Part shown: in pieces, positions 3,591-64,000 of the stretch
Layout of the letters: each line of letters opens with the position of its first letter
How positions within the stretch are numbered: the stretch's first letter is position 1
NCBI RefSeq assembly: GCF_964355755.1
Contig: NC_092670.1
Span: 14,259,201 to 14,323,200 of the forward strand
Length of the DNA: 64,000 nucleotides
Direction: 5' to 3'
From: Antedon mediterranea
Lineage: Eukaryota > Echinodermata > Crinoidea > Comatulida > Antedonidae
Translations under genes and position numbers: made by a program
The notes under the pieces: model-generated
Told to the model about the DNA's origin: nothing
The model's database searches: none
The model's input: only the letters and a program-made list of their open reading frames with translations

Positions 3591-4020
3591 CACAAAGTTA
3601 ACGACGACAAGCTAAATTCATACTTTATTATCAACACAACAATGACCTGTTACAAATGCATCTTATACAATCACCCCATATGTATCAGCAGTATACAATG
3701 GATAAAAGCTTTTATATCGATATGCATTTTATAAGCAATTCTTATGTATTGTTCACACAGATGCGAATAATAATAGTACCAACATACAGTCTGCCAACAT
3801 AGTGTTTTTAACAAAATAAAATGTTCGTATTCGTTCAATCACCTGAGAGGAGAATATTTTTATGAGTTATGAAAGTTCTGAATTTGTATAGTACAGTATA
3901 TCTATTTTTTATATATCATGCCAGTTTCAAATTTATTTCCATTTTACTACTCTGGACAAGTAAATAGTATCAGTATCAGATCAGCGCTCCCCATCGCCCT
4001 ACATTCACATTTGTATTTAC
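3591..4020. other. Intergenic, nothing recognised
   Basis: AT-rich sequence with no exon, RNA gene or clear repeat. It ends where the 20-bp minisatellite starts. Confidence 0.5.
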
Positions 4021-4022
4021 TG

Positions 4023-4905: not shown

Positions 4906-5139
4906 AGTTTTCTTAAGTGAGCTACACTGTCCGTCGACATAATTTTGTAATGGCCATGTTATTTCATTTTTCAGTCAAAGAAATCCATTCTTGACCTTTC
5001 CACATGGTTAGATAGATGCGCCATAATACAGTTTTTTATTACCGTGTTTTGGTTTCAATATGTGTAGGTTTACTACCTTTTAGTCTTTATTACAAAACTC
5101 GAACTTCTGTGGTACCGATACCGTTGTTCTCATAGAGAC
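4906..5139. other. Upstream region of the P450 gene
   Basis: This is the gap between the minisatellite array and the P450 start codon. It must hold at least part of the promoter and 5' UTR, but I cannot point to a convincing TATA box or initiator. Confidence 0.4.
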
Positions 5140-11578: not shown

Positions 11579-11648
11579 ATGTTGCAAATCATGTTAGTGA
11601 GATTATTAATTCCCCTTTTTGGACTTATCACTCTTGGACATTCCCAAA
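11579..11648 (+). CDS. HYR gene exon 1, signal peptide (predicted)
   Basis: An ATG is followed by 22 codons with the hydrophobic core RLLIPLFGLITLG and a polar end HSQ, a good secretory signal. The exon ends at a GTGAGT donor in phase 1, exactly the phase needed by the HYR exon at 18426; the split codon would be ATC (Ile). The intron would be 6.8 kb. No transcript evidence is available here, and another first exon is possible. Confidence 0.7.
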
Positions 11649-17600: not shown

Positions 17601-20600
17601 GTCTGAATATCACTCAGGCGATTTGGGAATAAAGGAGAACATCTGTAAAGAAGACACCTTTGCTGTGTCCCAAATGAGGGTAACGGGATGATGCGGCCCT
17701 GAAGCAATTCGACGCCGAGATGATTCGCCCAGGTAGATTCAGCCCTGAGACGATTCGGCCCACTTATATCGGCTTTAATATGCATTTAATAAGCATTCTA
17801 TACTGTATTTATTTATTTATTTTTTTATTTATTCATTCTTAATTTCAGATCCATAGAAATCAAAACCAAAATATTTATATAATGCTGAGATAAAGCATCA
17901 GAATAAATAAAAATATAAATAAATTATTTTACACCATGGTACAACTTTGACACTTCAACAATACTATTGATTGTTGTAAATAAGACATTATCACTAAGCT
18001 TAATTTGTTTTGCTAACGTTGCGGTAGATTTTTTTCAAGTAGAAACCAAGCTTTTAAAGCTTCTCAATAATCATAAACAGCTTGCAGTGAGAATAAAACA
18101 ATGTCTATATAAAAAAAGGATCATTTAATTCATTCTCAGACATTGTCTTTTAAAATGCTTTATTACTAACATTGAATACATCATTTACAGCCGTACAACA
18201 TAAACGGTAATAACAAAATATCACGAAGCATTAAACAATTCACAGAAAGAAAATTACAGCAAAGCCCTGCTGTTTTTGGGTAATCATACACACTGTTTAT
18301 CACAGTGACAGTCTACATTGATAAACAAGTCATACATTTGCAGTAGAAAATGTAGTTACTGCAGTAATTGCAGTAGATTGATGTTGACATGATTCCTTAC
18401 GGCACAATGTTTCCTTCTCTTTCAGTCACGTTTGATAATAATTGTCCAACAGTAGATGAGACAATAAATAACACTGGTCAATTTCCATATGCATACACTA
18501 TCCCAGTGATTACAGCAACCTATTCAAACGGAATGACTGCTGCAGACGTTCAGGTGACATCATCACCTGCCTATACTCCAGGTGGTGTTGTCAATTTTGG
18601 AGTAAATGCTGTTCTTATTATGGTGTACACAGCATCAGCCATTGGTGAGGCTGATGTAACCTGTGAATTCTCTGTGACATTTTTGGGTATGTAAAGCTTA
18701 AAAATTCATCTCTTCATCTTAATGTAATGTTCCATGTATTCACAAAAAATATATATATATATTGGCAAGGACACAAACTCTTAGGGCAGCCTATGTATCA
18801 CAAAGACCAGTTATGAAAAAACGTCCGCCAATGAAACGTCAATATTACAGGTAAGTTCCAAATACACGGTGTCATAATTATGCGTCATAATGTGAAATCT
18901 ATTTTATCACATTCACTATTATGTGACGTTGTCACATTTAATACACTGTGTGTACAATTTACTATGAAGCTGATTGTAAATGTTCATCTGGTTTGTAATT
19001 AACAATAAAAGTTAAAGAATCTTCAAAGTATTTTAATTTTAAAAAATATCAAAAAAGGTAAATCCTCACTATTTTATCATTTTGCTTGAATCCAGTTTTA
19101 TTTTACAATTGTATTTTAGGAATTTCCTCTTTTTAGACTAATTTATTACTATATTTGTAAACATGTTCTGAACAATTTCATTCATTTCCTTTTATTTGTC
19201 ACTCCTTTTTAACATGTTAAATATTGTCTTTCTTTGTATTGTGATTTTAAAGTGTTATTGTATGTTTTTTTATGTCTTTTATGAATGTTTTTAATCTATT
19301 GCTAAAAAAACAGGACCATGTAAACCAAGTGCAATATATATACCCGATATGTTTTTATCCTGTTTTTATCCTAAATAAATAAATGTGTAAACAATTCTTT
19401 TATCAAACCAATGGAAGAATTACGAGATTAGATGGCAAATACCTTCTTTTCTTGACGGTTCACGAACAACTTCTTCAGAAGAATGAATACCTGCAATTAG
19501 ACAGATTGAACTCTGGAGGACCAATTCTGTCTAAATATACAGGTTCATATAATATGTGACTCAGTTGGTATAAAAGCCAACTTCACAGATATATATTTGG
19601 ATACGATCGAAGAAGACAAAAGACCATCAATACAACCGGACGAAGGCGCACACCAACTGAGTCACAATTGACCCTGTGTAATTAGACAGAATTGGCCCTC
19701 TGGAGGTCAGTCTGTCTAATTACAGAAGAAGTTGTTCGTCGAAAGGAGCAACGTCGAAACCGTCAATAAAAGAAGGTATAGGTTTATACCAGGGAGTTGT
19801 TATTAGTAAGTATTAGTATTAGTAATAACAACAATAACAACAATAACTAATAACAACTCCCTGGGTATACCATCTAATCTCGTAATTCGTACCATTGGTT
19901 TGATAAAAAGGAATTTTTACACACTTTTAAGATTTCATAATAATGGTATGTATGTTATGCGCGATTTGAACGATTTGCGCAATTTAAAATTGCGCAAAGA
20001 ATTCTTGCGCAATTTGAAATTGCGCAGGGATTTTCTTGCGCAATATTAAATTGCGCAATCAACTTGCGCAATTTGAAATTGCGCAAGAAAATTCTTGCGC
20101 AATTTCAAATTGCGCTGCACAATTTGTAAATTGCGCAAGATAGTTCTTGCGCAATATGACACCTTTGCGCAATTTGAAAACGAACGGTTTGTTATTTTTG
20201 TTATTGTACTCATTTGTTGTTGAGAATGGTACCGAAAGGTCGATCTTTTTTGTCATTAAATTTAATTTTTAAGTTAAATAGTAAACGTCTAATAATTCGT
20301 AATAATTATTGTTTCTAAAAAAAATCCAATCGTGATTAGTCTTATTAATCGTCATTAGTACTGATATTTGAATTGAAATTATTATCTATTGGTATTTATT
20401 TATGCCTTCTCCTCATATTATGTGTGAATATGGTATTTTATAGAACCATTGGGAATTCGAGATTTTTTTTATTCGGAAAAAAAAATTCGGGAGGGAGGCT
20501 CCCGGGAGGGTAAGGAAATGCGATATTATCTTCAATTTTGAATCATTCTTAGAAATTACTAAAAAAATATGGGTGTGCATGATTTCACAATCTGTCGAAA

Positions 20601-28410: not shown

Positions 28411-28447
<37 letters not shown>

Positions 28448-43238: not shown

Positions 43239-43271
<33 letters not shown>

Positions 43272-55200: not shown

Positions 55201-58200
55201 TTCAGTAAAAATGTTATCATGGTATATTTAATTATTGTTGTATATATTTTACAAAATCTTATCTTAAAAATGTTATTAAATTGATATTATTAGATTGTCA
55301 CTGTCAATAAATTGATTTGTTTAAAATATAGGTTGTCAATAATTCTGTTTTTCTTATAGATAATGAGAATCCAAATATAACTTGTCCCAGTGACTTCAAT
55401 GTTACAACAAGCAATGGAAAACCAACAGCTTGGATTCGATGGGATGTTGAATACACAGACAACACAGAATCTTTATATGATCTCAGTCTAACAGGATCAG
55501 GTTCAAGTTATAATCAATCTGGTGATAACTTTCCCATTGGAACAACAACACTGAAGTATATAGTAACTGATGCATTTGGAAACATTGATAGCTGCACATT
55601 TGATGTCATTGTACGAGGTGAATCCAAAATGAGTTTATTATATTTTTTTTGTAACTTTTATAACCATTTTATTATTCAGGAAGCTTTGTTGTGTAATCAT
55701 ACACACTGTTTACTGCATTGACTGCTTCAAAAACTTCAACATTGAACACAAAAGATATATCCTACATTTTAGCAGTAAAAAATATAGTTTAATTCAATTC
55801 AATAAACTTTATTGTCAAACTCATGAATGGCTTGAAACTTTGGCTGAAAGTACACAAATTAAAATTGTCTAAAAACATTGTCGCACAAACAGTAATAAAA
55901 AGTATAAAATCACATAAAACTGAGAACAAGATGGTATATAAAATAGTTAAAAGAGGACATAAAAAGTATAAATCGAGGTAAAAGTACAGCTAAAATACTT
56001 ATAGCGGTTATCGTTTCCACATTAAATTAAAATGCCTCATAGCAGATGGGAGAAAGGATCTACGTAGACGTTCAGTGTTCCAGCGAGGATATGTAATGCG
56101 CCCAGACCGGCTTAACGTAGTGTACTAGTTAAGGGGGTGGCTAACATCTGACATAATAACTTTAAGTTTATTTATAAGTGCGTTGTTAACAACTTCATCT
56201 GATTTCTTAATATCGTTTCCTATTATCTTTTTGGCAGATTTACTTTTATTCTTTGTCTTTCATGCTGGTTTAAATTGTTGAACCAAACTATTGCATTAAA
56301 ACTTAAAACAGATAAAATAAAAGATTCATAAAATAAACTCAAGATCCTATTGCACACATGAAATTTCTTCAATCTTCTCAGAAGGTACAGTCGTTTATAA
56401 CAATTTGTGATAACTAACTTAGTTAGTGTTTTCCTTCCAATTAAGTTTATCATCGATTACTGTGCCTAGATACTTAAAGTTACTAACAACTTCCACTTCA
56501 TTGTTTAATATACATAACTTATCATGTAATAATATAAGTAGTTCTTTGATAGTAAACCAATAAAACTTACGTTGGCAAGACAGTTTCGTCTAGCTGTCAG
56601 CTTGACTTCTTCAGTTGCTATGATGCGTTATGGCGCCGATTGGTCTCCTTTCCAGCCACTAGATGATTTTGTTGTGTAGCCTAGGGGACCAGTCGTCGTC
56701 AGAAGCTGATCGTAAATGTGAGATAGTTGGTGCGCGCCTTCGTCTCTATTCATCTTTGTATTTTTATTTTGCTTTCTTATGCTGATGCTTTCTTTAATTT
56801 TACGTTTAAGCCAAACTTGTTCTTTGTGTAGTACCTCTATCTTATCCCAGTTAGGTATGTGGTTGTGTGTGGTCATATGGTCCGTGATTGCTGATTTATG
56901 TAAAATGGAGGACGAAACTTTCCGTGATGCACGCGTCTGCATGTTCTGTGTGTTTTCCTCAACATCTTTCTTGTGCTCTTTAATTCTGGTTTTGAGTGCC
57001 CTACCCGTTTCCCCAATGTACACCATCTCACAGTTGGTGCACCCCACTTTGTAGACGACACCACAGGAATCCTCTTTGCATGCTTTATCTTTCGGTCGGA
57101 CGATTAAGTTTTTAATTTTGTTAGATGGTTTAAAGTATGTTCGTATGTTATATTTTTTAAATGTTCTCTTGATTTTCTCTGACAGGCCTTGAATATATGG
57201 GATGGATATCGACCCTCTTATATCTTCTGTTTCGGGTTGTTTGTCCGTTTTTTGTTTATCTAGGTTACGTTGTACCTTTCTAATCGTCCATGTAGGGTAG
57301 TTGCATTGTTTAAGTGAAGTATGTATCATCTCAGTTTTGTTCTGTTTGTCTGGATTATTTGTGATTATCGTGTTACATCTGTGTAGAAGTGTGCGGATAA
57401 CGGATAACTTGTGTTGTAGAGGATGATGTGAGTTAAAGTCCAAGTATTTAACTCACATCATCCTCTACAACACAAGTTATCCGTTATCCGCACACTTCTA
57501 CACAGATGTAACACGATAATCACAAATAATCCAGACAAACAGAACGAAACTGAGATGATACATACTTCACTTAAACAATGCAACTACCCTACATGGACGA
57601 TTAGAAAGGTACAACGTAACCTAGATAAACAAAAAACGGACAAACAACCCGAAACAGAAGATATAAGAGGGTCGATATCCATCCCATTTATTCAAGGCCT
57701 GTCAGAGAAAATCAAGAGAACATTTAAAAAATATAACATACGAACATACTTTAAACCATCTAACAAAATTAAAAACTTAATCGTCCGACCGAAAGATAAA
57801 GCATGCAAAGAGGATTCCTGTGGTGTCGTCTACAAAGTGGGGTGCACCAACTGTGAGATGGTGTACATTGGGGAAACGGGTAGGGCACTCAAAACCAGAA
57901 TTAAAGAGCACAAGAAAGATGTTGAGGAAAACACACAGAACATGCAGACGCGTGCATCACGGAAAGTTTCGTCCTCCATTTTACATAAATCAGCAATCAC
58001 GGACCATATGACCACACACAACCACATACCTAACTGGGATAAGATAGAGGTACTACACAAAGAACAAGTTTGGCTTAAACGTAAAATTAAAGAAAGCATC
58101 TGCATAAGAAAGCAAAATAAAAATACAAAGATGAATAGAGACGAAGGCGCGCACCAACTATCTCACATTTACGATCAGCTTCTGACGACGACTGGTCCCC

Positions 58201-61200
58201 TAGGCTACACAACAAAATCATCTAGTGGCTGGAAAGGAGACCAATCGGCGCCATAACGCATCATAGCAACTGAAGAAGTCAAGCTGACAGCCAGCTAGAC
58301 GAAACTGTCTTGCCAACGTAAGTTTTATTGGTTTACTATCAAAGAACTACTTATATTATTATACGAATCGAAACCAGAAGAAATGTTTTCATAACTTATC
58401 ATGTGTTTTGTTACCTTTTCTAAAAGTAATGAACATTTCTTTAGTCTTGTTAACATTTAATTTTAGATAGTTATTAGAACACCAAGTAGAAAAATAACTA
58501 GACCGGTGTCATCAGCGTATTTCACAGTAAAGCATTTGGTTAAACCTAGATCATCTGAACATTTAAAATCATTTGTATATAAAGAGAATAAAATAGGAGA
58601 TAAAACACAACCTTGTGGTGCACCAGTATTGCACATAAGTTGCATAGACGAATTTTTCCCTATCTTTTAAAAAATCATTGATCCATAAAATAGTAGCTGG
58701 ATTTATATCCAAGACATACATTTTCTCCATTAAAATATGAGGTTGCAAAGTGTTAAAAGCGGATGAAAAATCCAAGAATAAAACTCTAGCATACAAATTG
58801 TTATGTAATAAAGTTGTAACTGTATCTTCTACCCCCCTTTTGGAACGGTAGGCAAATTGACAGGGATCCAAAAGACTCTCAGTCTCACTTAAAATCTCAT
58901 TCTTAATTAATTTTTCAAAACATTTCATAGGTACAGCAGTTATGGCAATGGACGTCCTATAGTCATTTAGAGCTTCAGGTTTATTATTCTTTGACAAGGG
59001 GTGAATTGATGATTTTTTACAGATTCTAGTTAGTGCAGTAACTTCAGTAAAACAATTTTACATGGTCCCTTATTATATGATAGTAGGTTTTCTAATAATT
59101 GTAGTTACGTTTTGTTTGCTTATCTAGATACTGAAGCGCCAATGTTAACTTGTCCAGATGACATTGTAAACACGACTGTGATTGGTGAGGAGTACGGTAT
59201 TGCCAATTGGGTGGAGCCAGAAATTACAGACAACTCCGGCATTATTTACCTCAACATGTCAAATTTCATTTCTGGTGATCAATTCTACCCAGGCAACACA
59301 ACTGTTTATTATTATGCTGAGGATCCATCTGGAAACTATGTTAACTGTAGCTTTATTGTCACAATTGATGGTAAGGTTTTAAAATATCTACAACATTAGA
59401 CACATTGTTGATATAATCCTTAAATGTCACTTAAAATACTGTAGAGAACACCCATGTAGGGCACACCTTCAGGACAAATTCTCTTGAATAGGGGTTGTAG
59501 CATTACAATGTCCCCTTGTTTGTTGCTGAATGTTGGTGTGCCAGAAGAAGGCTCTACTGTTTTATAGTACAGATAACATTAACATTATATATAGCACACC
59601 TTTCTATGATATACTGTCACAGCATTGTTTAAACGGATTATTGTCATCACAATTTTGAATGATACTCAGCAAATTCTTCCAGATTCTTGGTTCTGCTACG
59701 TAAAATGCGTGGTCAGCAAATTGTTATTTGTCTGCTTGAACTGCCAGCTACAATAACAATCTATTTTATTTGAGTGGAGATGTGGCTTGGTGGTTATGGT
59801 GCTTGGCTACCACTCCAAGGGTCCTGGGTTCAAATCCCATCACATGTCAGGATTTTTTCTAAGGACAAAATTACAACTTCACTCCCAAAGACTTTGTTTA
59901 TGTAGAGCATCTTGTGTATATGTTTGTCTTGTGAACCTCTGAGGGTCCCTAATGATCAGCTGTTGCTGGATGGATCATCCTCATTAAATATGGTTTGAAT
60001 GAATGAAATGAATGAATAGATGCACAGCGTATTATTTGGAAAGACATTTTAAGAATAATTTCTCAATCAGCGTAGGTTTATATCTTTCCATAGGTTATAT
60101 TGAGATCAAACAATCCTTATACCTTATTATTATCATTCAATTTGAAGGTTGAATATGACATTTTAAAATATGTTTTTTTTTTGCTCCTAGATTTCCAGAT
60201 ACCAATCTTTGACCCATGTCCTGCTAATATTGATGTGAACACAGATCCAACGCTTCCGTATGCTGTAGTCAATTGGACCATTGCTGTAGATGATAACGTC
60301 GGTATTGTTACACTAGAAAGCAACTATTACCCTCTTGATAAATTTAATATTACAGTTACGGAAGTAATATATGTTGCAACAGACACTGACAACAATCAAG
60401 CAGAGTGTAAATTTAATATTACAGTTACAGGTAACACTCATTTTGTGTAAATTCTTTGCATAAAAAAATAAACGTGTATTCAAATTGCTTACATACCTGT
60501 CAAGCCTAGAGTAAAGTACTAACAACTTTGTTGCTTGTGGTATTTGCACATCACAACGTGAAGCAGCCTATACTGATAACGATACTAGATACTTTACTCT
60601 TAATTCCTTATTCTTCAGATGGGACATTAAGCTGTTTGTCAGAAAGCTGTAAGGCTCTGTAAAAGTTGGATAACAACAAAAACTAACTCCGCCATTAATT
60701 TTTCTGCATGTGTTAATTATATTTTTTTACTGCGTGGCAGCTATTCATATTCTGGACAGCAATTTGACCTCCTGAGATGCTTTATTGCTTTTCAGATCCG
60801 AAAGGTTATTGTTTGTCTACAAAACATTGGCCTAAGACGACCTAGGCTAAATTTACGGCTTTTACTCTCTGCGGGTGAAATCAATTAAGACGATTGTACA
60901 CTGCATGGTCCGTGGGTGTTCTAATATAGAAATTCAGTTTGTTTCTTTATTTCTAGTTTATATTAATATACCATTTGAGCATGTAGCTAAAACGGTCTTC
61001 AGAATCATTCACAATTTAATTTCTTTGCTTTTTATTTTAAAGATAACGAAATACCAATCATTGATGGATGTCCTGACGATGTTACAATAAACACAACAAG
61101 TGGTTTATCAACAGGCGTGTACACCTGGCCTCAGGTGAATGCTACGGATAACTCTGGTTCTGTTAATTTGTTTGGTCCTCAACCACCGGGCAACACTTTC

Positions 61201-64000
61201 ACAATTGGAGTCACGTCTATCCTTTACATTGCTATTGATGATTACAATAACCTGGCTCAGTGTGAATTTACCATCACTGTTATTGGTAATTTTTTTGAAA
61301 TACTTAATACTTATTTAAAGGTCTGCTAAAGCTGTTAGATATACACAGTTGTTAGGAATTCACATATCCATTGACTAATTATGGGTGGCTGTCACATTTT
61401 GAAAATCTGGCCAACTTCTGCCTACGTACTGTATCAACATCGTTTTACTAAAATGCTGGACTTGTGTGGGGCTATCACAATTTGATGCTTTAGCCATTGT
61501 ACACCGACATATCAAAATGAGCTTGGATGCATCTCAAATATGTTACAGGTTAGTTTCTATAAGTCCAGAGCATGCTGCAACATGCTCGTATTCCTAAAGG
61601 TTGTCTTCATACATTGGCTGTAAGTCTGATTATTTTACACATAGTTTGAACATTTCTTAGTATATGCTCTGAACTTAAGCAAAACTTGCCTATAACTTAT
61701 TCATATGCCAGCGTTTTATATAATATAACAATTCTGTATTGTATGTATTTAAAAAAAATGTAACTTTGTTTGTGTACTTAGATGTGGAAGCCCCGGTAAT
61801 TGATAGTTGTCCAGAAGATATGATTGCTTTTGCAGAAGTTGGCGACGCCTATGCCAATGTGTCATGGGTTGAACCAATTGCAATGGACAACTCTGGAACT
61901 TTAGATTTTGAAGCTGACAAGGATGTTAATAGCGGTTTTCCAATTGGATCGACCATAGTTACATATACAGCCAGTGATGAGTCAGGAAATCAGGAAATAT
62001 GCTCATTTAATTTAACAGTATTTGGTAAGTTCTTCTACTTTTCAATCATGAAAATTTGCATAACTTTAATGTGGTTTCGCAGTAGATTTAATTTGACAGT
62101 AGGGAGTTTTTGCATTAGCACTTAACTCACAAGCTCCACTTTTGACATGATAAAAAAATCGAAAAATACACTTAAACATGAAAGCCTTGGTCAATGAATT
62201 GTAATATAGTGTGAGTTGTTGAGGTACTGACTTGTAATGAAGACTCTTACTCGCTTAACTGTCGTAATACATATATTGTTTATTCAGTATAATACTTGAT
62301 AGTACGATAATAATGATACAGCTAACTAACTGACTGACTAAGGAACAGAGGATATAGTGATGCTGTCGGTGAGGTGTGAAGTGTGTAGGTCTGCTTCTGG
62401 AGAAGTGGCTGTGAGGTGTGTGCTCCGTGAGGTGGCTGTAAGGTGTGTGCTCCGTGAAGTGGCTGTAAGGTGTGTCTGGGCTCTTCTGAAACTTGGGGGT
62501 ATATTGGCTTCGGTTCATTTGCATATGTCACTACGTAATCTGTGAGGGTAACGATTGGTCCTAAGTTGGTCCAGGGGTGTTTAGGTAGAAGAAATTAACA
62601 GTATAATAAGGTATTTCTATGATGGATGACACTGTCAAATCTGTACTTAAACAGTGTCAATCTCTCCTGGTTTAACGATGGGAAAAGTCACAAAATTAAG
62701 CTAAGTGTTTTCTTTAGGGATTCTATTATAAACTAAATGGTCATTAAAACATCTGGACAAACTCTCCTCTGGACTTTCTGGGTCAAGTTTGTGAACTTAT
62801 TTGAATTCTGATACAAAGGTCAATTTCTTAATTATAAAAGTATATCGTTATATTACAGAATATAATTACTGTATATCAAACAGAAGTTCCAAAAGTTTAT
62901 GTTTTTCCCCTCAAAAATTGAACTTTCTTTTTCTTCACAATGTGTTTTATGAAGCTTATACTTTTTATGAAATTAAGCGAATTAAAAAAAAAAATCAAAT
63001 GTTGTTTTAACAAATGTATACAGTACTTTTGTATTTATCTTATCTTGCTGATTGTAGGTAATGATATGGAAAATCCGGTTTTTGAAAACTGTCCAAGCGA
63101 TATAAATCGCACTACCATTGATGGTGAAAGTTATAATGTTGCAGTATGGCCGGATATTATGGTTACCGATAACATTAAAGTTTACAACACAAGTATGACG
63201 CACATGAGTGGAGATAACTTCTCTATAGGAATGACAGAGGTTATATATACTGCCTTTGATTCAGCTGGAAATGTTATGTACTGTGAATTCATAGTATGGA
63301 TTATTGGTAATTAGTGTTTGTTACTGTTCTTGTAGCCGTAGCCGTCTTCTTCTGAAGACACCTGTTACCAGTTGAATCGAGATTTACGTTTATACCATGT
63401 TATACACTTTTATTTTATTTTTTTGATTTCTATAACATTAAGAATAAGAATTATGTTATTTATTAATATGAAATAAGATAACGTATTGTTGGTCAAAATA
63501 ATTGTACCTAACCTTCTAAACAATCTCTTGCACTCAAAAATAAAAAAAAACAACATTTCCTTGATATCCTTACAGCGTTGCCCAGATTTTTTTCATGAAT
63601 GTTGTACTAGCTAAGGGAGTACACTTTCATTGTATATTTTAACATTCAGACTTACACTCCGCCATAATTTCGACTGGAATGTATATTGAAGCTACTCTAC
63701 TGGGCCTACCATGATTAGATTAGCTGCTTTAGTTACCAACAATATTCCTGATATAATATAAAATTTATAAAAGAAAGAGCAAGAACCAATACACAAATGA
63801 GAAAACAGATTTTTCTTAAATTATATAACTGTCTATTTAAAAAAAATTAATTTATTTCTGTAGACAATGAAATTCCAACACTGAATAATTGTTCAGAAGA
63901 TATTTCTCAAGTTGCTCTTCTTGGCGAAAATTCAACTACCGTCAGTTGGGATAAACCAGTAGCCGGTGACAACTCCGGAGAAAATACCCTCACATCAAAT
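11579..64000 (+). CDS. Giant HYR-repeat (hyalin-like) secreted/cell-surface protein, 5' part
   Basis: A signal-peptide exon and 52 HYR exons give about 4,435 codons without a stop; the gene runs off the right edge. Each HYR domain is encoded by one exon of 240-291 bases that starts and ends in phase 1, so exons can be added or lost without shifting frame. The typical domain reads xEDP/xEAP near the start, then CP, a VTW or VSW strand, ATDNSG, an FxIG turn, a Y-A-D-SGN loop and C-x-F-x-V-T-V-x-G. HYR domains have an immunoglobulin-like fold and act in adhesion and extracellular matrix; sea-urchin hyalin is the namesake. Many N-x-T/S sites suggest dense N-glycosylation. No other domain type, transmembrane segment or EGF/CCP module is seen in this window. 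Linking the signal-peptide exon to the array rests on phase and position only. A split into two genes cannot be excluded where introns are long. Confidence 0.9.
12651..12735. mobile_element. MITE family 1, copy 2 (half)
   Basis: It begins GTTCTGTCTACACTATCAAA and continues with the same TGTGACAA and GTGATGTGCC motifs as the copies at 2010 and 46097. The opposite inverted end is absent, so this is a truncated copy. It lies in HYR intron 1. Confidence 0.65.
12830..13213 (+). mobile_element. Possible LINE 3' tail
   Basis: A T-rich segment follows GGACCCCAACGG and ends with ACCGAATAATAAATGAATGAATG, a simple-repeat tail of the kind left by CR1/L2-type LINEs. A segment with a comparable tail (CCTAAATAAATAAATG) ends near 19385 in the next intron. 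No reverse-transcriptase coding is present, so the call is tentative. Confidence 0.35.
13582..15381. mobile_element. hAT-like non-autonomous transposon, copy 1 (1,800 bp)
   Basis: The ends are CAGGGGTGGCGCCAG and the complement of CAGTGGTGGCGCCAG. The element is bounded by an exact 8-bp duplication, ATCGACTG, at 13574-13581 and 15382-15389. CAG-starting ends plus an 8-bp target duplication are hallmarks of the hAT superfamily. There is no transposase frame; open frames inside are GC-rich artefacts. The element is in HYR intron 1. Related copies are at 22609-24210 and, inverted and truncated, at 24521-25707. Confidence 0.93.
14391..15300. repeat. Internal tandem repeats of hAT copy 1 (three units of about 290-325 bp)
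   Basis: The motif CGTCGGTAAACTTCGCCTGG starts units near 14391, 14677 and 15001. Each unit continues with the same GATATCACG, CAACGTTGAACGATTCGTAC-type and TCTAGGCGCTGAA blocks. Copy 2 of the element has two units and copy 3 has one. Confidence 0.9.
15390..16274. other. Intron 1 sequence, nothing recognised
   Basis: AT-rich intronic DNA right of the hAT element. I see no exon or defined repeat; two TAGGCCTA palindromes occur near 15525 and 16004. Confidence 0.45.
16275..16850. repeat. Degenerate minisatellite related to the 20-bp array at 4 kb
   Basis: Variants of GTCGCACTTTGTAATAACTG alternate with GCTGTCACGCTTTGTAATAA. The core TGTCGCACTTTGTAATAAC is shared with the array at 4023-4905, 12 kb away. 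This array is more diverged and thus probably older. Confidence 0.85.
16851..18425. other. 3' part of HYR intron 1
   Basis: AT-rich sequence. A patch at 17660-17770 repeats GATTCGGCCC-like motifs, and T-rich stretches occur near 17810. No exon is seen until the TTCTCTTTCAG acceptor ending at 18425. Confidence 0.45.
18426..18686 (+). CDS. HYR gene exon 2, first (divergent) HYR domain
   Basis: The exon encodes 87 residues starting TFDNNCPTVDET and ending CEFSVTFLG before a GTATGT donor. The two outer cysteines and the closing C-x-F-x-V strand fit HYR, but the TDNSG block is absent and the usual VTW is ITATYS. It is the most diverged domain, as expected of an N-terminal cap. Downstream lies a 7.3-kb transposon-filled intron. 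Confidence 0.8.
19402..19902. mobile_element. Inverted pair of Penelope-like element 3' fragments
   Basis: The outer arms are inverted copies: ACGAGATTAGATGG near 19420 and its complement near 19870. The arms also share the ACTTCTTC/GAAGAAGT and AATTAGACAGA blocks. Between them, on the + strand at about 19600-19670, a frame reads RPSIQPDEGAHQLSHN and stop. That matches the C-terminal tail DEGAHQLSH of the Penelope-type endonuclease seen at 56.6-58.3 kb. A GAAGAAGTTG...GTCGAAACC block near 19723-19770 resembles the hammerhead-type core of Penelope terminal repeats. No complete protein remains. Confidence 0.7.
19944..20779. mobile_element. Foldback element built of TTGCGCAA palindromes
   Basis: The termini are inverted: TGGTATGTATGTTATGCGCG at the left and TGGTATACATGTTATGCGCG read inward from the right. 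Both continue as ATTTGAACGATTTGCGCAAT. Inside each arm (19965-20175 and 20600-20755) TTGCGCAATTTGAAATTGCG-type units alternate in both orientations. The AT-rich middle, about 400 bases, has no coding frame. It is probably a non-autonomous transposon; the superfamily is not identified. Confidence 0.8.
20808..20965. repeat. Short GGTCCGG / GGCTGCCAAAA repeat cluster
   Basis: Motifs such as AAATCGGTCCGG and TTTGGCTGCCAAAA recur about four times in 150 bases, partly as inverted copies. It abuts the TTGCGCAA element and may be its neighbour or part of another degenerate transposon. Confidence 0.5.
21477..22240. mobile_element. Non-autonomous transposon with long terminal inverted repeats
   Basis: TGGCGCTACTGCAGTTTCGC at the left is matched by its complement at the right end. 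Inverted homology continues for about 120 bases (ACCACACYGTTATATCTT, then TTATGTAACATG). Both sides are flanked by TATATTT, a possible AT-rich target duplication. The interior is AT-rich with no transposase. Family unknown. Confidence 0.75.
22609..24210. mobile_element. hAT-like non-autonomous transposon, copy 2 (1,602 bp)
   Basis: Ends are the same as copy 1 (CAGGGGTGGCGCCAG and CTGGCGCCACCACTG). An exact 8-bp duplication, CCCGTATC, flanks it at 22601-22608 and 24211-24218. That target lies within the terminal repeat of the host element, so this insertion is younger than the host. It carries two internal tandem units (near 23506 and 23832), one fewer than copy 1. Confidence 0.93.
24521..25707 (-). 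mobile_element. hAT-like non-autonomous transposon, copy 3, inverted and truncated
   Basis: The sequence is the reverse complement of copies 1 and 2. It ends with an intact GGCGCCACCCCTG at 25707. At the other side homology stops at about 24521 inside the GGGAACACG block, so the GC-rich terminal segment is missing. Only one internal unit is present (GTTTACCGACGG near 24835). No 8-bp duplication is found. Confidence 0.88.
25969..26226 (+). CDS. HYR gene exon 3
   Basis: This 86-residue domain starts GDPYYPDCPTEP, contains ATWNEPTPTDAS and YTATDGSGNTGTC, and ends VIG before GTAAGT. An insertion of about 12 residues after the TDAS block (MIPESMQTK region) makes the strand C-D loop longer than usual. 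The acceptor lies just 32 bases from a transposon end. Confidence 0.9.
26445..26708 (+). CDS. HYR gene exon 4, cysteine-free HYR domain
   Basis: The domain of 88 residues reads GDPIVTEYPDDTT, LYNWTAPVATDNSG, FPIGPTVVTV, SDPSGNSVADMFTVTVQG. Both canonical cysteines are replaced: CP is YP and the C-x-F position is M-F. Folding would rely on the hydrophobic core alone. The frame, phases and other motifs are intact, so it is not a pseudo-exon. Intron 4 (26709-27635) shows nothing recognisable. Confidence 0.88.
27636..27917 (+). CDS. HYR gene exon 5
   Basis: The domain starts EDPNITCPTNSS, with a roughly 12-residue extension (YYSSISADIWV) before the NGES block. It continues VTWDLPSVSDNSG, YNVSDPSGNENTC and FTIVVEG. 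The donor is GTTAGT. About six N-glycosylation sequons are visible. Confidence 0.92.
28050..28441 (+). mobile_element. A-tailed retroposed sequence with 12-bp target duplication
   Basis: AAAACTGCCATT occurs at 28038-28049 and again at 28442-28453. Between them is about 390 bases of AT-rich sequence ending TTCAATAAA plus a run of some 33 adenines. A polyadenylation signal fused to a poly-A run with flanking duplications is the signature of LINE-mediated retroposition. No coding region is seen; the source could be an mRNA 3' UTR or a short LINE end. It lies in HYR intron 5. Confidence 0.75.
28763..29041 (+). CDS. HYR gene exon 6
   Basis: 93 residues starting EDPDITCPMPLTV. The strand is ATWVIDATDNVE and the end is NFTATDSFGNQASCSVLITVLG before GTATGT. 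An unusual EDSNANGSF stretch replaces the standard loop. Confidence 0.9.
29584..29838 (+). CDS. HYR gene exon 7, ancestor-like A1-type domain
   Basis: 85 residues: EQAPDIIGCPMDIIVNTTTG, NVTWMEPTATDNSEETPV, DNMFAIGDTTVQY, SAGNFNDSC. It is clearly the same type as the first exon of each downstream three-exon module, 4.5 kb before the tandem block. The donor is GTACTT, weaker than in the other copies. Confidence 0.93.
30609..30890 (+). CDS. HYR gene exon 8, ancestor-like A2-type domain
   Basis: 94 residues starting NEKPMIVCPANVTMNYIG, then TVTWDPPVTSDNSNATV, LIPIGTHTITFTATD and a C-terminal KVEG. It resembles the second exon (NESPMIDC type) of the three-exon modules, so exons 7-8 look like a diverged founder pair. 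Confidence 0.93.
30945..32570 (+). mobile_element. 5'-truncated LINE with degenerate reverse transcriptase
   Basis: From about 30975 the frames read FPTALKVAKVIPLFKKG, then NYRPISILP, FKHQYGFREKYSTT, GIFIDFSKAFDTINH, GVPQGSVLGP and the catalytic-box-like LFADDTTLYH. These are the ordered motifs of a Jockey/CR1-type non-LTR reverse transcriptase. Further on are a WCDANKLTVNLVKT block and a C-terminal NNSPLVIK region. Several frameshifts and at least two stops break the frame. The end carries a TATTATTATTA tail near 32570. It sits in HYR intron 8 in sense orientation. Confidence 0.88.
32571..33253. other. 3' part of HYR intron 8
   Basis: Very AT-rich sequence after the LINE; no exon or defined repeat is seen until the TATTTTAG acceptor. 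Confidence 0.45.
33254..33544 (+). CDS. HYR gene exon 9
   Basis: 97 residues starting EPPTPNCPSTVAG. It has VSFNITVVDNV in place of VTW plus DNSG and an expanded loop with SIDMVYYDFETT. It ends QESCYVMVVIEG. The tryptophan is lost (Phe-Asn at this place). Phase and both cysteines are kept. Confidence 0.88.
34042..35436 (+). CDS. HYR module A, copy 1: exons 10-12
   Basis: Exons are 34042-34296, 34397-34681 and 35188-35436 (85, 95 and 83 codons). First domain: DEAPDIIDCPMN and NVTWMEPTATDNSG. Second: NESPMIDCPTNVTSNNYIG and VTWDPPVTSDNNGG, ending VFGLNVEG. Third: NEDPVLVCPPNITTTT, NVNWTDPIVIDNSDED and AGTCTFTVTVTG. The intron after the second exon is of the same type as in copies 4 and 5 (CAGCGTTATGAGTATATTAT). 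The second exon has VFG where other copies have DFG. Confidence 0.95.
35585..36966 (+). CDS. HYR module A, copy 2: exons 13-15
   Basis: Exons are 35585-35839, 35940-36224 and 36718-36966. The first domain starts PEAPDIIDC with VTWVEPTATDNSEEAP and DNMFPIG. The second has DPPETSDNSGG. The third has AEGSDQAV and IDNSNED. The long intron (36225-36717) belongs to the second intron type, shared only with copy 3. The module period to copy 3 is exactly 1,530 bases. Confidence 0.95.
37115..38496 (+). CDS. HYR module A, copy 3: exons 16-18
   Basis: Exons are 37115-37369, 37470-37754 and 38248-38496. It differs from copy 2 by only a few bases: the first exon starts LEAPDIIDC with VTWMEP, and the third reads NVSWTDP. 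The 493-base intron 37755-38247 looks identical to that of copy 2 by eye, pointing to very recent duplication or conversion. Confidence 0.95.
38645..40057 (+). CDS. HYR module A, copy 4: exons 19-21
   Basis: Exons are 38645-38899, 38999-39283 and 39809-40057. The first domain has EETPVPVSDYTSGDNMFAIG and SADNFNDSC: the usual AGN of the SGN loop is ADN. The second has WDLPVTSDNSGG. The third has YDAVDSSGNAGTC. The long intron (39284-39808, 525 bases) is nearly identical to that of copy 5. Confidence 0.95.
40206..41618 (+). CDS. HYR module A, copy 5: exons 22-24
   Basis: Exons are 40206-40460, 40560-40844 and 41370-41618. The first two match copy 4 residue for residue as far as I can see, including ADN. 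The third is more diverged (TTSTVEGSEQAV, CTFIVTVTG), so the end of the tandem block has accumulated more changes. Confidence 0.95.
41619..42279. other. HYR intron 24
   Basis: Unlike the 148-base equivalent introns inside the tandem block, this one is 661 bases and unrelated to them after the first few bases. No exon or defined mobile element is seen. Confidence 0.5.
42280..42531 (+). CDS. HYR gene exon 25, diverged module-A first domain
   Basis: 84 residues: EEAPVIINCPMDITVDTTTG, VTWMEPTATDNSGETPLPV and a loop SGDMFFLGNTTVQY one residue shorter than the tandem copies. It marks the right border of the A block: a sixth, solitary first exon without its partners. Confidence 0.94.
42885..43125 (-). 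mobile_element. Penelope-type terminal fragment with hammerhead-like core
   Basis: On the minus strand, around 43055-43090, it reads CTGATGA, then AGGGCTAGTGTTGCCC, then GAAAGCTCTGCT. CTGATGA plus a GGGC/GCCC stem plus GAAA is the core layout of hammerhead ribozymes found in Penelope-like retroelement terminal repeats. Stem I is not obvious. Downstream is a long AT-rich remainder with a TA microsatellite. No protein frame remains. Confidence 0.5.
43240..43269. repeat. (TAA)n microsatellite
   Basis: Ten perfect TAA units in HYR intron 25. Confidence 0.95.
43482..43769 (+). CDS. HYR gene exon 26
   Basis: 96 residues: MEAPSFSGTCPASPLEVPTD, an insertion with PTGNRAIG, then FATVTWTIPTATDNVDDVV. 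It ends EDAAGNVEICSFLVKVVG. The N-terminal loop is about ten residues longer than in neighbouring domains. Confidence 0.92.
44084..44335 (+). CDS. HYR gene exon 27
   Basis: 84 residues: EEPPIFYTCDNSTVYINNT, YTWMEPTNADNI, FTIGENDIIYILYD, SGNQNSCNFTIVVLG. The CP pair is CD and the DNSG turn is DNIL. Confidence 0.92.
44776..45018 (+). CDS. HYR gene exon 28
   Basis: 81 residues: EDPVIVNCPNNTVDMTDAG, NVTWTEPTATDNDDVV, FYIGVTTVNYTAVDPSGN and AVCVFNVTIEG. It is the standard short HYR form. Confidence 0.94.
45406..45648 (+). CDS. HYR gene exon 29, module-B second-domain type
   Basis: 81 residues starting KESPTLDCVSNVTVYTDLN, with NVSWPIPETTDNSG and STDASNNVQTC. It is the diverged forerunner of the TESPTLDC exon in the four-exon modules. 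Exons 29-31 together form an incomplete zeroth module B that lacks the EEAPYIAG domain. Confidence 0.94.
46097..46244. mobile_element. MITE family 1, copy 3
   Basis: AAAGCTTAGTCTACACTATC at the left is mirrored by GTGTAGACAGAGCTTT at the right. The interior shares GTGATGTGCC and the TGATGTCATATCACTACCAT block with copy 2. It lies in HYR intron 29, about 25 bases before the exon 30 acceptor. Confidence 0.8.
46269..46523 (+). CDS. HYR gene exon 30, four-cysteine HYR domain
   Basis: 85 residues: NEDPDFACPLDVIIVDTDAS, TVTWTVPIVVDNSG, YNCTHESGDLFD, QNVSCTAQDPSGNDAYCFF. Two extra cysteines (YNC and VSC) sit on facing strands in addition to the usual pair, predicting a second disulfide. Confidence 0.93.
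46925..47182 (+). CDS. HYR gene exon 31, module-B fourth-domain type
   Basis: 86 residues: NENPNITCPSDFNVTTDNG, AWIEWNVEYTDNTES, FTIGITTLEYIVTD, NASCTFYVTVRG. The donor is GTGAAT, shared with the later copies of this exon except the one at 52950. Confidence 0.94.
47556..49087 (+). CDS. HYR module B, copy 1: exons 32-35
   Basis: Exons are 47556-47798, 47939-48181, 48277-48525 and 48830-49087 (81, 81, 83 and 86 codons). Domains in order: EEAPYIAGCPMDIVLNTTSM, TESPTLDCVSNVTVYTDLN, NEDPVFDCPDNIMVYTDES and NENPNITCPSDFNVTTDNG. The third is the four-cysteine form (YNC and VSC extra). The first lacks an F-x-I-G turn (GFAATITQVTY). The introns are not disrupted, so this copy shows the uninserted state of the TTAA MITE site used in copy 2. 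Confidence 0.95.
49461..51305 (+). CDS. HYR module B, copy 2: exons 36-39
   Basis: Exons are 49461-49703, 50167-50409, 50505-50753 and 51048-51305. It differs by single residues from copy 1: EDICIFNVTVIG in exon 36, SWRIPETTDNSG in exon 37 (Pro to Arg beside the core tryptophan), VSCMTQDPSG in exon 38 and TTNNGQPTAW in exon 39. The first intron holds a TTAA MITE, which makes this module about 310 bases longer. Confidence 0.95.
49771..50084. mobile_element. TTAA-target MITE, copy 1 (314 bp)
   Basis: AGATGTATTGTCCCC at the left and AATACATCT at the right are inverted ends. TTAA directly flanks both sides (49767-49770 and 50085-50088). The paralogous introns at 47.86, 51.98 and 53.89 kb read straight through GTAATTAACCATG, giving the pre-insertion sequence. 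TTAA duplication points to a piggyBac- or Kolobok-type transposase source. An internal palindrome (GGTCAAATTGGCTGCCAGCC region) could fold. Confidence 0.93.
51679..53207 (+). CDS. HYR module B, copy 3: exons 40-43
   Basis: Exons are 51679-51921, 52068-52310, 52407-52655 and 52950-53207. Exons 42-43 and their 294-base intron are almost identical to those of copy 2. Exon 43 has a changed donor, GTTAAT instead of GTGAAT, which also makes an in-frame TAA immediately after the donor. If the donor failed, translation would stop there. Confidence 0.94.
53585..55617 (+). CDS. HYR module B, copy 4: exons 44-47
   Basis: Exons are 53585-53827, 53972-54214, 54310-54558 and 55360-55617. Exon 46 has FTYNCTSES and DPSENDASC (Glu replaces the Gly of SGN). 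Exon 47 is the most diverged of its type (TTSNGKPTAWIRW, NQSGDNFPIG, CTFDVIVRG). The last intron is lengthened by a TTAA MITE of 517 bases. Confidence 0.94.
54672..55188. mobile_element. TTAA-target MITE, copy 2 (517 bp)
   Basis: AGATGTATTGTCCC at the left is exactly mirrored by GGGACAATACATCT at the right. TTAA flanks lie at 54668-54671 and 55189-55192. The homologous intron of module B copy 3 has ATATTAATCTATAAG at this place, again an empty site. Only the ends resemble copy 1, so the family is heterogeneous inside. Confidence 0.93.
56628..57443 (-). CDS. Penelope-like GIY-YIG endonuclease C-terminal fragment, left arm
   Basis: An open frame of about 270 codons with no reverse transcriptase part. 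It holds a KDKACKEDSCGVVYKVGCTN cysteine cluster, the GIY-YIG-like MVYIGETGRALKTRIKEHK, and a downstream SAITDHMTTHNHIPNW histidine block. This is the CCHH-type GIY-YIG endonuclease of Penelope-like elements, which nicks DNA for target-primed reverse transcription. The frame starts at the palindrome centre, so it is 5'-truncated and not an intact gene. Confidence 0.88.
   Translation of the reverse strand: MDFNSHHPLQHKLSVIRTLLHRCNTIITNNPDKQNKTEMIHTSLKQCNYPTWTIRKVQRNLDKQKTDKQPETEDIRGSISIPYIQGLSEKIKRTFKKYNIRTYFKPSNKIKNLIVRPKDKACKEDSCGVVYKVGCTNCEMVYIGETGRALKTRIKEHKKDVEENTQNMQTRASRKVSSSILHKSAITDHMTTHNHIPNWDKIEVLHKEQVWLKRKIKESISIRKQNKNTKMNRDEGAHQLSHIYDQLLTTTGPLGYTTKSSSGWKGDQSAP
57447..58256 (+). 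CDS. Penelope-like GIY-YIG endonuclease C-terminal fragment, right arm
   Basis: The mirror copy of the left-arm frame, open to the same C-terminus (SSGWKGDQSAP). An ATG at 57555 leaves 233 codons. I see only a few substitutions against the left arm (IPFIQG for IPYIQG, ESICIRK for ESISIRK), so the arms separated recently or are kept alike by conversion. Confidence 0.88.
   Translation, partial: FNSHHPLQHKLSVIRTLLHRCNTIITNNPDKQNETEMIHTSLKQCNYPTWTIRKVQRNLDKQKTDKQPETEDIRGSISIPFIQGLSEKIKRTFKKYNIRTYFKPSNKIKNLIVRPKDKACKEDSCGVVYKVGCTNCEMVYIGETGRALKTRIKEHKKDVEENTQNMQTRASRKVSSSILHKSAITDHMTTHNHIPNWDKIEVLHKEQVWLKRKIKESICIRKQNKNTKMNRDEGAHQLSHIYDQLLTTTGPLGYTTKSSSGWKGDQSAP
59128..59370 (+). CDS. HYR gene exon 48
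   Basis: 81 residues: TEAPMLTCPDDIVNTTVIG, ANWVEPEITDNSG, FYPGNTTVYYYAEDPSGN, VNCSFIVTIDG. It is the first domain after the LINE-bearing 3.5-kb intron and clearly not a module-B copy. Confidence 0.94.
59765..60027 (+). mobile_element. tRNA-derived SINE
   Basis: The head has an A-box-like GTGGCTTGGTGG and a perfect B-box GGTTCAAATCC 38 bases on, with partial cloverleaf pairing. A body of about 170 bases follows, ending in the tail GAATGAATGAAATGAATGAA. It lies in HYR intron 48, sense orientation. A functional tRNA is excluded by the imperfect acceptor and the attached body. Confidence 0.85.
60191..60430 (+). CDS. HYR gene exon 49
   Basis: 80 residues: FQIPIFDPCPANIDVNTD, VVNWTIAVDDNVGIV, KFNITVTEVIYVATDTDNN, ECKFNITVTG. 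The FxIG turn is replaced by FNIT. The donor is GTAACA. Confidence 0.92.
61043..61285 (+). CDS. HYR gene exon 50
   Basis: 81 residues: NEIPIIDGCPDDVTINTTSG, VYTWPQVNATDNSGSV, FTIGVTSILYIAIDDYNN, QCEFTITVIG. The SGN loop is YNN. Confidence 0.92.
61782..62024 (+). CDS. HYR gene exon 51
   Basis: 81 residues: VEAPVIDSCPEDMIAFAEVG, NVSWVEPIAMDNSG, FPIGSTIVTYTASDESGN, ICSFNLTVFG. A standard domain with every consensus landmark. Confidence 0.94.
62380..62485. repeat. Minisatellite, about 33-bp unit
   Basis: Three direct copies built on GTGGCTGTAAGGTGTGTGCT plus CCGTGA in HYR intron 51. The open frames on both strands here are repeat artefacts. Confidence 0.85.
63058..63306 (+). CDS. HYR gene exon 52
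   Basis: 83 residues: NDMENPVFENCPSDINRTT, VAVWPDIMVTDNIKV, FSIGMTEVIYTAFDSAGN, YCEFIVWIIG. The acceptor is TTGTAG. The donor GTAATT is weak, and an in-frame TAG follows shortly after it. Confidence 0.9.
63864..64000 (+). CDS. HYR gene exon 53, cut by the window end
   Basis: The 5' half of a domain: NEIPTLNNCSEDISQVALLG, VSWDKPVAGDNSGENTL. The window ends before the second cysteine. The proline of CP is Ser here. Confidence 0.9.

What the first reader, a model, noticed from the sequence alone, without database searches (positions are those of the whole stretch)
11579..64000. A single gene with at least 52 one-exon HYR domains, all symmetrical phase 1-1
I placed both splice sites for every HYR exon; all complete exons have lengths divisible by three and phase-1 borders, giving about 4,435 open codons. 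No other domain type is present so far. An HYR-only protein of this size would be a very long filament, larger than the HYR run I know from hyalin.
Basis: partly seen in the sequence, partly recalled or inferred. Interest (0 to 1): 0.75.

Follow-up and report, generated by a model that had tools for sequence, protein, structure and literature searches.

The report
Giant membrane-anchored HYR-array gene
In an echinoderm genome, one huge gene strings about 80 copies of a sticky domain (HYR) into a long rod that ends not as a free filament but in a membrane anchor, and a second, similar gene lies just beside it.

Summary
The window carries a signal-peptide exon and 52 HYR(-like) exons (51 complete, 1 cut at the window edge), all on the + strand and modelled as phase 1-1. 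The first is too divergent for Pfam.

The reading "HYR-only filament" does not hold. Read into the adjoining chromosome, the modelled gene runs to 94,030 in window coordinates: 99 exons, GT-AG introns, an open frame of 7,460 codons (about 804 kDa). It encodes 80 HYR domains, one of them split over two exons. After the array come EGF, EGF_CA, SEA, EGF, one more HYR, a SEA-like segment, EGF, EGF_CA, SEA, EGF, a transmembrane helix and a short cytoplasmic tail. The last SEA carries a variant (GSVKV) of the self-cleaving motif.

A tandem paralogue (75 HYR, 7,069 aa) follows, and two other loci show a similar tail. dN/dS of 0.26-0.38 indicates purifying selection. Tandem units of three or four exons, introns included, have duplicated recently.

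Best reading: a very long, glycosylated, probably calcium-stiffened cell-surface tether with a membrane-proximal SEA release point. Ligand, expression and species are unknown; no transcript was available.

The parts
11579..64000 (+). part of the giant gene inside the window; the model runs on to 94030 in window coordinates (C1:14270779-14353230)
11579..11648 (+). first coding exon: signal peptide, phase-1 donor
   Evidence: 58% identical counterpart over 31 aa at 100517-100609
18426..18686 (+). divergent first HYR-like exon (N-terminal tip 1)
   Evidence: no Pfam hit; 63-79% identical copies at other loci
25969..26226 (+). HYR exon (N-terminal tip 2)
26445..26708 (+). HYR exon (N-terminal tip 3)
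27636..27917 (+). HYR exon
28763..29041 (+). HYR exon
29524..29838 (+). HYR exon, type A (start uncertain; the domain proper begins near 29583)
30609..30890 (+). HYR exon, type B
33254..33544 (+). HYR exon
34042..34296 (+). HYR exon, type A
34397..34681 (+). HYR exon, type B
35188..35436 (+). HYR exon, type C
35585..35839 (+). HYR exon, type A
35940..36224 (+). HYR exon, type B
36718..36966 (+). HYR exon, type C
37115..37369 (+). HYR exon, type A
37470..37754 (+). HYR exon, type B
38248..38496 (+). HYR exon, type C
38645..38899 (+). HYR exon, type A
38999..39283 (+). HYR exon, type B
39809..40057 (+). HYR exon, type C
40206..40460 (+). HYR exon, type A
40560..40844 (+). HYR exon, type B
41370..41618 (+). 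HYR exon, type C
35585..41766 (+). four tandem three-exon units of 1.53-1.56 kb (A-B-C), introns included
42280..42531 (+). HYR exon, type A
43482..43769 (+). HYR exon
44084..44335 (+). HYR exon
44785..45018 (+). HYR exon (start uncertain; the genome-wide Pfam match begins at 44772)
45406..45648 (+). HYR exon, type D
46269..46523 (+). HYR exon (a higher-scoring acceptor exists elsewhere; start kept as the phase-1 site)
46925..47182 (+). HYR exon, type E
47556..47798 (+). HYR exon, type F
47939..48181 (+). HYR exon, type D (domain used for the fold model)
48277..48525 (+). HYR exon, type G
48830..49087 (+). HYR exon, type E
49461..49703 (+). HYR exon, type F
50167..50409 (+). HYR exon, type D
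50505..50753 (+). HYR exon, type G
51048..51305 (+). HYR exon, type E
51679..51921 (+). HYR exon, type F
52068..52310 (+). HYR exon, type D
52407..52655 (+). HYR exon, type G
52950..53207 (+). HYR exon, type E
53585..53827 (+). HYR exon, type F
53972..54214 (+). HYR exon, type D
54310..54558 (+). HYR exon, type G
55360..55617 (+). HYR exon, type E
47556..55617 (+). four tandem four-exon units of about 1.9-2.2 kb (F-D-G-E), introns included
59128..59370 (+). HYR exon
60191..60430 (+). HYR exon
61043..61285 (+). HYR exon
61782..62024 (+). HYR exon (mid-array control)
63058..63306 (+). HYR exon
63864..64000 (+). HYR exon, cut by the window end (true end 64106); not in the Pfam scan

Best explanation
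The array is the ectodomain of one giant type I membrane protein (7,460 aa, about 804 kDa). A signal peptide is followed by about 80 HYR beta-sandwich domains, all but one in an unbroken row, then a membrane-proximal stalk of EGF, EGF_CA and SEA modules, a transmembrane helix and a cytoplasmic tail of about 80 residues (shown, as a gene model). Inferred: the HYR domains stack end to end into an acidic, N-glycosylated, calcium-stiffened rod a few hundred nanometres long. The rod tethers the cell surface to other HYR proteins or to the apical extracellular matrix. The last SEA self-cleaves at GSVKV, so the ectodomain is held non-covalently and can be let go under load or by regulated shedding. 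Rod length is set by how many three- or four-exon units each gene carries; symmetrical phase 1-1 exons let whole units be duplicated or lost without breaking the frame.
For: Continuous frame of 7,460 codons over 99 exons with GT-AG introns, a signal peptide exon and one terminal stop. HYR in 76 of 77 scanned exons. Pfam SEA 5.1e-12, EGF_CA 9e-8, EGF 2.8e-6 in the tail; EGF 5.7e-10, EGF_CA 1.1e-6 and a just-sub-threshold SEA (25.7 against 26.4 bits) in the block before it. The hydropathy maximum of the whole protein (3.3) is at residue 7358. Purifying selection: pooled dN/dS 0.36 over 34 reciprocal-best exon pairs with the paralogue (34 of 34 below 1, range 0.06-0.77), 0.26 within the gene (24 pairs), 0.38 in the tail. 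A similar tail recurs in the tandem paralogue, at C10:11.87 Mb and at C1:39.149 Mb (read by eye). Fold model of one HYR domain: pLDDT 93.3, all beta. The array profile matches the solved SraP adhesin by sequence at 1.5e-6, and SraP, dystroglycan and cadherins are among the nearest folds, though none at E<=0.001. 226 N-x-S/T sequons, pI 4.05. GSxxV is the stated motif of self-cleaving SEA domains (PMC9478142, passages); GSVKV or GSIKV stands in SEA2 of this gene, SEA2 and SEA3 of the paralogue and the C10 gene, and exact GSIVV at C1:39.149. Neighbouring tandem units are 94-99% identical with introns.
Against: No transcript or peptide evidence. Calcium binding and end-to-end stacking are inferred from fold resemblance and recalled knowledge of cadherins. 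GSVKV departs from the strict motif (V or I at both x positions), and a similar string (GSVEV) occurs once inside a HYR domain. No solved SEA matched SEA2 by sequence. A genome-wide search with the SEA profile found 4 matches, none in this gene or its paralogue, whose SEA domains are each split by an intron. The 'SEA1' segment is not recognised by Pfam, and the last EGF before the membrane has no match of its own above the cut-off. No dedicated transmembrane predictor was run; a weaker hydrophobic stretch (above 1.6) lies at residues 6820-6840 inside the first SEA block. Ligand and tissue are unknown.
Confidence: 0.62

Rival explanations
1. It is an egg-surface sperm receptor of the EBR1 type: HYR repeats on the egg bind sperm bindin and set species specificity.
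For: The genome encodes a bindin core (PF02084, E 2.3e-28) on the same contig, about 1.2 Mb away. Sea urchin Ebr1 carries HYR repeats (PMC8403831, passage), and a S. [quoted passage not shown]
Against: No CUB or TSP1 module was reported in the parts of this gene scanned with Pfam. HYR exon pairs show purifying selection, 34 of 34 ratios below 1. Same-contig location with bindin at 1.2 Mb means little. No expression data.
Confidence: 0.15
2. It is one of a set of variable recognition receptors (self/non-self or immune) whose heads are shared between different anchors.
For: The first three HYR-type exons recur at 63-89% identity at C1:6.69-7.22 and 34.0 Mb, while one mid-array control exon has at most 53% outside the two paralogues among the 150 listed matches. 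HYR arrays at C1:6.5-7.3 Mb have GPS motifs of adhesion GPCRs downstream.
Against: Only one mid-array control was run. That the heads at C1:6.69-7.22 Mb belong to the GPS-bearing genes was not shown, and no GPS match lies near the one at 34.0 Mb. The head exons differ by modest dS (0.1-0.5), so recent duplication explains them. Allelic hypervariability could not be tested.
Confidence: 0.12
3. The array is really two or more transcription units, or is heavily alternatively spliced, so that no 80-HYR protein is made.
For: No RNA data. Large introns of up to 7.3 kb. Symmetrical phase 1-1 exons can be skipped without frameshift. Internal start and poly(A) sites were not searched for.
Against: The paralogue has a similar plan from signal peptide to stop. 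No other strong exon candidate in the window.
Confidence: 0.15
4. The copy number is inflated by assembly error in the 1.5 and 1.9 kb tandem units.
For: Neighbouring units are 94-99% identical; one pair has introns differing at only 1 of 741 sites.
Against: Only 36 of the 79 single-exon domains belong to such families; in the other 11 of 12 unit pairs compared, introns differ by 2-15%; the one N run in the 204 kb lies outside both genes.
Confidence: 0.06

Closest known systems
Hyalin (sea urchin hyaline-layer protein, 330 kDa)
   Same: Built of HYR repeats; extracellular, adhesive; echinoderm.
   Different: Described as exclusively HYR and as a matrix protein (PMC3723904, PMC3528131, passages). 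Here about 804 kDa with EGF, SEA and a transmembrane anchor.
S. purpuratus EBR1_5 (1,243 aa: transmembrane, SEA, seven HYR)
   Same: HYR domains plus SEA plus transmembrane domain (PMC5521101, passage). Closest architecture found in the held papers.
EBR1, egg bindin receptor
   Same: HYR repeats; very large echinoderm surface-associated protein.
   Different: CUB and TSP modules and no predicted transmembrane domain (PMC8403831, passage).
IMPG2 and membrane mucins (SEA membrane stalk)
   Same: SEA domains of which the second bears the GSxxV self-cleavage motif and leaves a membrane-attached piece (PMC9478142, passages).
   Different: The extended part is HYR domains and not a mucin or proteoglycan region.
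HycP of Clostridium cellulolyticum (23 HYR, 250 kDa)
   Same: Long HYR array (PMC3723904, passages).
   Different: Bacterial, with a cellulose-binding module; unrelated architecture.
HYR-bearing adhesion GPCRs of the same genome (C1:6.5-7.3 Mb; probably C4:22.19 Mb)
   Same: Upstream HYR exons; the N-terminal tip exons of this gene recur in the C1:6.5-7.3 Mb cluster (not shown to be in the same genes).
   Different: At C1:6.914-6.924 Mb HYR exons run on to GPS and 7tm_2; this gene ends in one transmembrane helix and no GPS match lies near it.

Membership tests
HYR domain (PF02494) | profile match of each unit | tested here: met
   76 of 77 scanned single-exon domains at E<=0.01; the divergent first one fails; 77 of 79 were scanned
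HYR domain (PF02494) | Ig-like beta-sandwich fold | tested here: met
   AlphaFold2 model of one domain (alignment of 25 of the 51 complete window exons), pLDDT 93.3, eight strands; best PDB matches are Ig/cadherin-like but weak, none at E<=0.001
Hyalin | HYR repeats only, secreted matrix protein without membrane anchor | tested here: not met
   EGF, EGF_CA, SEA and a transmembrane helix in the same frame
EBR1 (egg bindin receptor) | CUB and TSP1 modules (ADAMTS-type) | tested here: not met
   none among Pfam matches of the tail and of 77 array exons
EBR1_5-like HYR-SEA-TM proteins | HYR array followed by SEA and one transmembrane helix | tested here: met
   (helix by hydropathy only)
EBR1_5-like HYR-SEA-TM proteins | common descent with the sea urchin gene | not testable with these tools
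   no sea urchin protein collection available
Self-cleaving SEA proteins (MUC1, IMPG2 type) | GSxxV with V or I at both x, in the membrane-proximal SEA | tested here: inconclusive
   GSVKV in this gene, GSVKV and GSIKV in the paralogue, GSIKV at C10; GSIVA and GSIIA in the earlier SEA block; exact GSIVV only at the C1:39.149 relative
Membrane mucins | long Ser/Thr/Pro-rich mucin region | tested here: not met
   the extended part is HYR domains
Adhesion GPCR | GPS motif and seven-transmembrane domain | tested here: not met
   stop codon soon after the transmembrane segment; no GPS match at C1:14.2-14.46 Mb among 139 matches (150 of 180 candidates scored)

The most novel reading that the evidence does not exclude
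This echinoderm uses a shared N-terminal recognition head of three HYR-type domains mounted on interchangeable giant HYR stalks and anchors: single-pass SEA/EGF tethers with a release point here, adhesion GPCRs elsewhere. Stalk length is tuned by recurrent duplication of exon units. It would be a combinatorial long-range adhesion or recognition system.
Probability: 0.17. Interest if true: 0.75.

Novelty: new variant of a known kind. Interest (0 to 1): 0.5.

Why it matters
If expressed as modelled, it is a very long single-pass ectodomain, with about eleven times the HYR domains of the only HYR-SEA-transmembrane protein I found described (7 HYR, PMC5521101). It turns 'hyalin-like' repeats from matrix filaments into cell-surface tethers with a possible built-in release point. 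It also gives a clean case of symmetrical-exon arrays growing by whole-unit duplication in two neighbouring genes.

Tried and rejected
Rejected: HYR-only filament (the tail encodes EGF, SEA and a transmembrane helix). Chance phase agreement (145 of 154 acceptors even with an untrained matrix). Pseudogene array (open frame, dN/dS below 0.4). Large non-HYR exons in the window (none found; exons under 25 codons or of other phases would be missed).

Led nowhere: COX1 search to identify the species (no match); sequence search of SEA2 against solved structures (no match). A search for 'adhesion GPCR' + HYR + 'sea urchin' gave one paper; its listing counted HYR twice but the main text holds none. Two further papers were opened for passages only: PMC9382459 (a sea star footprint protein with 3 hyalin repeats) and PMC4063459 (OBi1 named as sea star bindin receptor).

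Corrected on the way: a first splice script had offset errors (fixed). The models lacked six tail exons in gene 1 and four in gene 2, found later through a SEA hit in an intron and added. dN/dS and the repeat families were computed on the earlier exon lists; HYR exons were unchanged. I expected the N-terminal tip to be under exceptional constraint; dN/dS between its copies is 0.24-0.85, so it is not. A tiny possible exon of gene 2 near 182105-182144 was left out as uncertain. Parts of the printed outputs were cut; I worked from the stored files.

Full report
Observation. The window lies at C1:14259201-14323200 (+) of a 354 Mb genome held in 18 contigs. An HYR profile built from the window finds 51 HYR hits, all on the + strand, the last cut by the window edge. 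A 52nd, divergent HYR-like exon at 18426-18686 is conserved at 70.7% over 92 aa in the neighbouring paralogue. Over 154 HYR hits in 204 kb, best-scoring splice sites taken without regard to phase fall in phase 1 for 152 of 154 acceptors and 151 of 154 donors. As that matrix had been trained on phase-1 picks, I repeated it with an untrained intron-only matrix: 145 of 154 and 128 of 154. The modelled exon borders were then taken from phase-1 sites only. Pfam HYR matches 76 of the 77 domains scanned.

What lies beyond. I fetched 140 kb downstream. The 154 HYR hits form two tandem groups: 80 hits up to 87.8 kb and 74 from 109.6 kb on. The first gene does not end in HYR. After the array come EGF, EGF_CA, SEA, EGF, one more HYR, a SEA-like segment, EGF, EGF_CA, SEA, EGF, a transmembrane helix and a short tail with a stop at 94030. 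The model has 99 exons, GT-AG introns (90 phase 1, 6 phase 0, 2 phase 2), 7,460 aa, 804 kDa, pI 4.05 and 226 N-x-S/T sites. It holds 80 HYR domains: 79 in single exons and one split by a phase-0 intron at 82369-82694. Pfam supports SEA2 (5.1e-12), one EGF_CA and one EGF in the last block, and one EGF and one EGF_CA in the block before. The SEA of that block is just under the cut-off (25.7 against 26.4 bits); the SEA-like segment is not recognised, and two of the EGFs are assigned by cysteine pattern only. A genome-wide SEA profile search found 4 matches, none in these two genes, whose SEA domains are split by introns. The helix is read from hydropathy (3.3 at residue 7358); a weaker stretch above 1.6 lies at 6820-6840 in the first SEA block. 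The second gene has 95 exons, 75 HYR and 7,069 aa; it has an extra EGF_CA-SEA-EGF block and, in my model, lacks the first EGF-EGF_CA pair.

Coding evidence. Between the two genes, 34 reciprocal-best HYR pairs give pooled dN 0.093 and dS 0.258 (ratio 0.36; single pairs 0.06-0.77). Pairs at least 75% identical within gene 1 give 0.26 (24 pairs) and within gene 2 0.35 (40 pairs); the tail gives 0.38 over 427 codons. These values argue for translated, selected exons. They came from the earlier exon lists, in which the HYR exons were the same and the first SEA block was missing.

How it grew. In gene 1, 36 of 79 single-exon domains fall in families at least 70% identical, in repeating order A-B-C and F-D-G-E; in gene 2, 59 of 75. 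Neighbouring units are 94-99% identical with introns included. One unit pair differs at 10 of 789 exon sites but 1 of 741 intron sites, while the other 11 pairs compared show the opposite, as expected if conversion tracts shuffle some units (inference). The four-exon unit is multiplied in both genes, the A-B-C unit more in gene 1, and a stretch around 164-177 kb only in gene 2.

Family. Searching the genome with the gene-1 tail gives strong matches only in the two paralogues; weaker ones are EGF-type matches elsewhere and a SEA match beside the HYR cluster at C10:11.87 Mb. That locus has 51 HYR hits (including partial ones) in the 36 kb fetched. They are followed by a SEA piece just under the cut-off, an EGF, an EGF_CA and a SEA over the cut-off with GSIKV, then a transmembrane segment read by eye. 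A further relative at C1:39.149 Mb, downstream of HYR hits on the same strand, shows SEA-like, EGF, EGF_CA, SEA with exact GSIVV, and a transmembrane segment (read by eye from open frames, not scanned with Pfam). So four loci share the tail plan, two of them on thinner evidence. Other HYR clusters end differently: HYR exons at C1:6.914-6.924 Mb run on to GPS (5.6e-16) and 7tm_2 (3.6e-14) exons, and eight GPS matches lie in C1:6.59-7.30 Mb.

The head. The first three HYR-type exons have 63-89% identical copies at C1:6.69-7.22 and 34.0 Mb, and a degenerate copy with stops at C3:27.709 Mb. One mid-array control exon has none above 53% outside the two paralogues among 150 listed matches. Synonymous divergence between head copies is only 0.1-0.5, so this can be recent duplication or exchange; it is not proof of special constraint. 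Only one control exon was run, and the copies were not traced to their own anchors.

Mechanism. Shown as a model: signal peptide, HYR array, EGF/SEA stalk, one membrane pass. Inferred: a rod of about 80 domains, roughly 300 nm if each adds 3.5-4 nm (recalled domain size). The HYR fold model is a confident all-beta domain (pLDDT 93.3). The array profile matches the solved SraP adhesin by sequence (1.5e-6), and SraP repeats, dystroglycan and cadherins are among the nearest folds, all weak. The invariant or nearly invariant D, N and D-x-x-x-N positions (25 of 51 exons) would suit calcium between domains, as in cadherins (recalled). The membrane-proximal SEA carries GSVKV; self-cleaving SEA domains carry GSxxV with x being V or I, and in IMPG2 the second SEA, not the first, is the cleaving one (PMC9478142, passages). 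I therefore favour a cell-surface tether with a membrane-proximal release point.

Literature. A library search for 'HYR domains' + transmembrane + 'SEA domain' gave one paper, PMC5521101, whose passage describes S. purpuratus EBR1_5: 1,243 aa, transmembrane, SEA and seven HYR. Ebr1 itself has CUB, TSP and HYR and no transmembrane domain (PMC8403831, passage). Hyalin is given as 330 kDa (PMC3528131, passage). Most subscription papers are not held, so larger HYR proteins may be in print.

Organism. A bindin core (PF02084, 2.3e-28, C1:15552879-15553076) marks it as an echinoderm (that bindin is echinoderm-specific is recalled). Matches in my genome searches fell only on C1-C11. Eleven large chromosomes would fit a crinoid (recalled, low confidence); the class is not established.

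Verdict. A real and unusually large gene model; the HYR count is right, the 'HYR-only' reading is not. A new variant of a known kind (HYR-SEA-transmembrane), of moderate interest.

Noticed in passing
window 56590-58294: Perfect inverted repeat (848-nt arms, 100% identical, 9-nt spacer) in the intron between HYR exons 55617 and 59128. The arm gives 54 matches over the genome (40 of 166 candidates scored), many at or near 100% and often as inverted pairs: it looks like a recently active mobile element with long terminal inverted repeats.
   Followed up: partly
C1:6.5-7.3 Mb; L021 (C1:6914001-6924000); L020 (C4:22186001-22196000): HYR-bearing adhesion GPCR genes: in L021 HYR exons are followed by GPS and 7tm_2; in L020 HYR exons are followed by EGF and Ig, with a GPS match just beyond it at C4:22196950. 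Eight GPS matches lie at C1:6.59-7.30 Mb.
   Followed up: partly
L015 (C1:15551379-15554576): Bindin core exon, on the same contig as the window and about 1.2 Mb away, on the opposite strand.
   Followed up: partly
window 5068-8707: Cytochrome P450 gene on the + strand upstream of the giant gene, in at least three open stretches.
   Followed up: partly
window 13581-15381, 22609-24210 and 24518-25708: GC-richer interspersed element in three copies, two of them in inverted orientation at 92.5% identity, in the first two introns.
   Followed up: no
window 4020-4897 and 16245-16838: Related minisatellite-like arrays about 12 kb apart, 68-73% alike.
   Followed up: no
L003 and L004 (cytoplasmic exons of gene 1) and L013 (gene 2): The two paralogues share cytoplasmic stretches (Y-D-N and S-T-P-Y-[IM]-A-T-G-D-E-E-L-S); possible signalling or sorting motifs.
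   Followed up: no
window 35585-37114 against 37115-38644: Two neighbouring three-exon units differ at 10 of 789 exon sites but only 1 of 741 intron sites, 8 of the 10 in one exon, as if by a conversion tract.
   Followed up: partly
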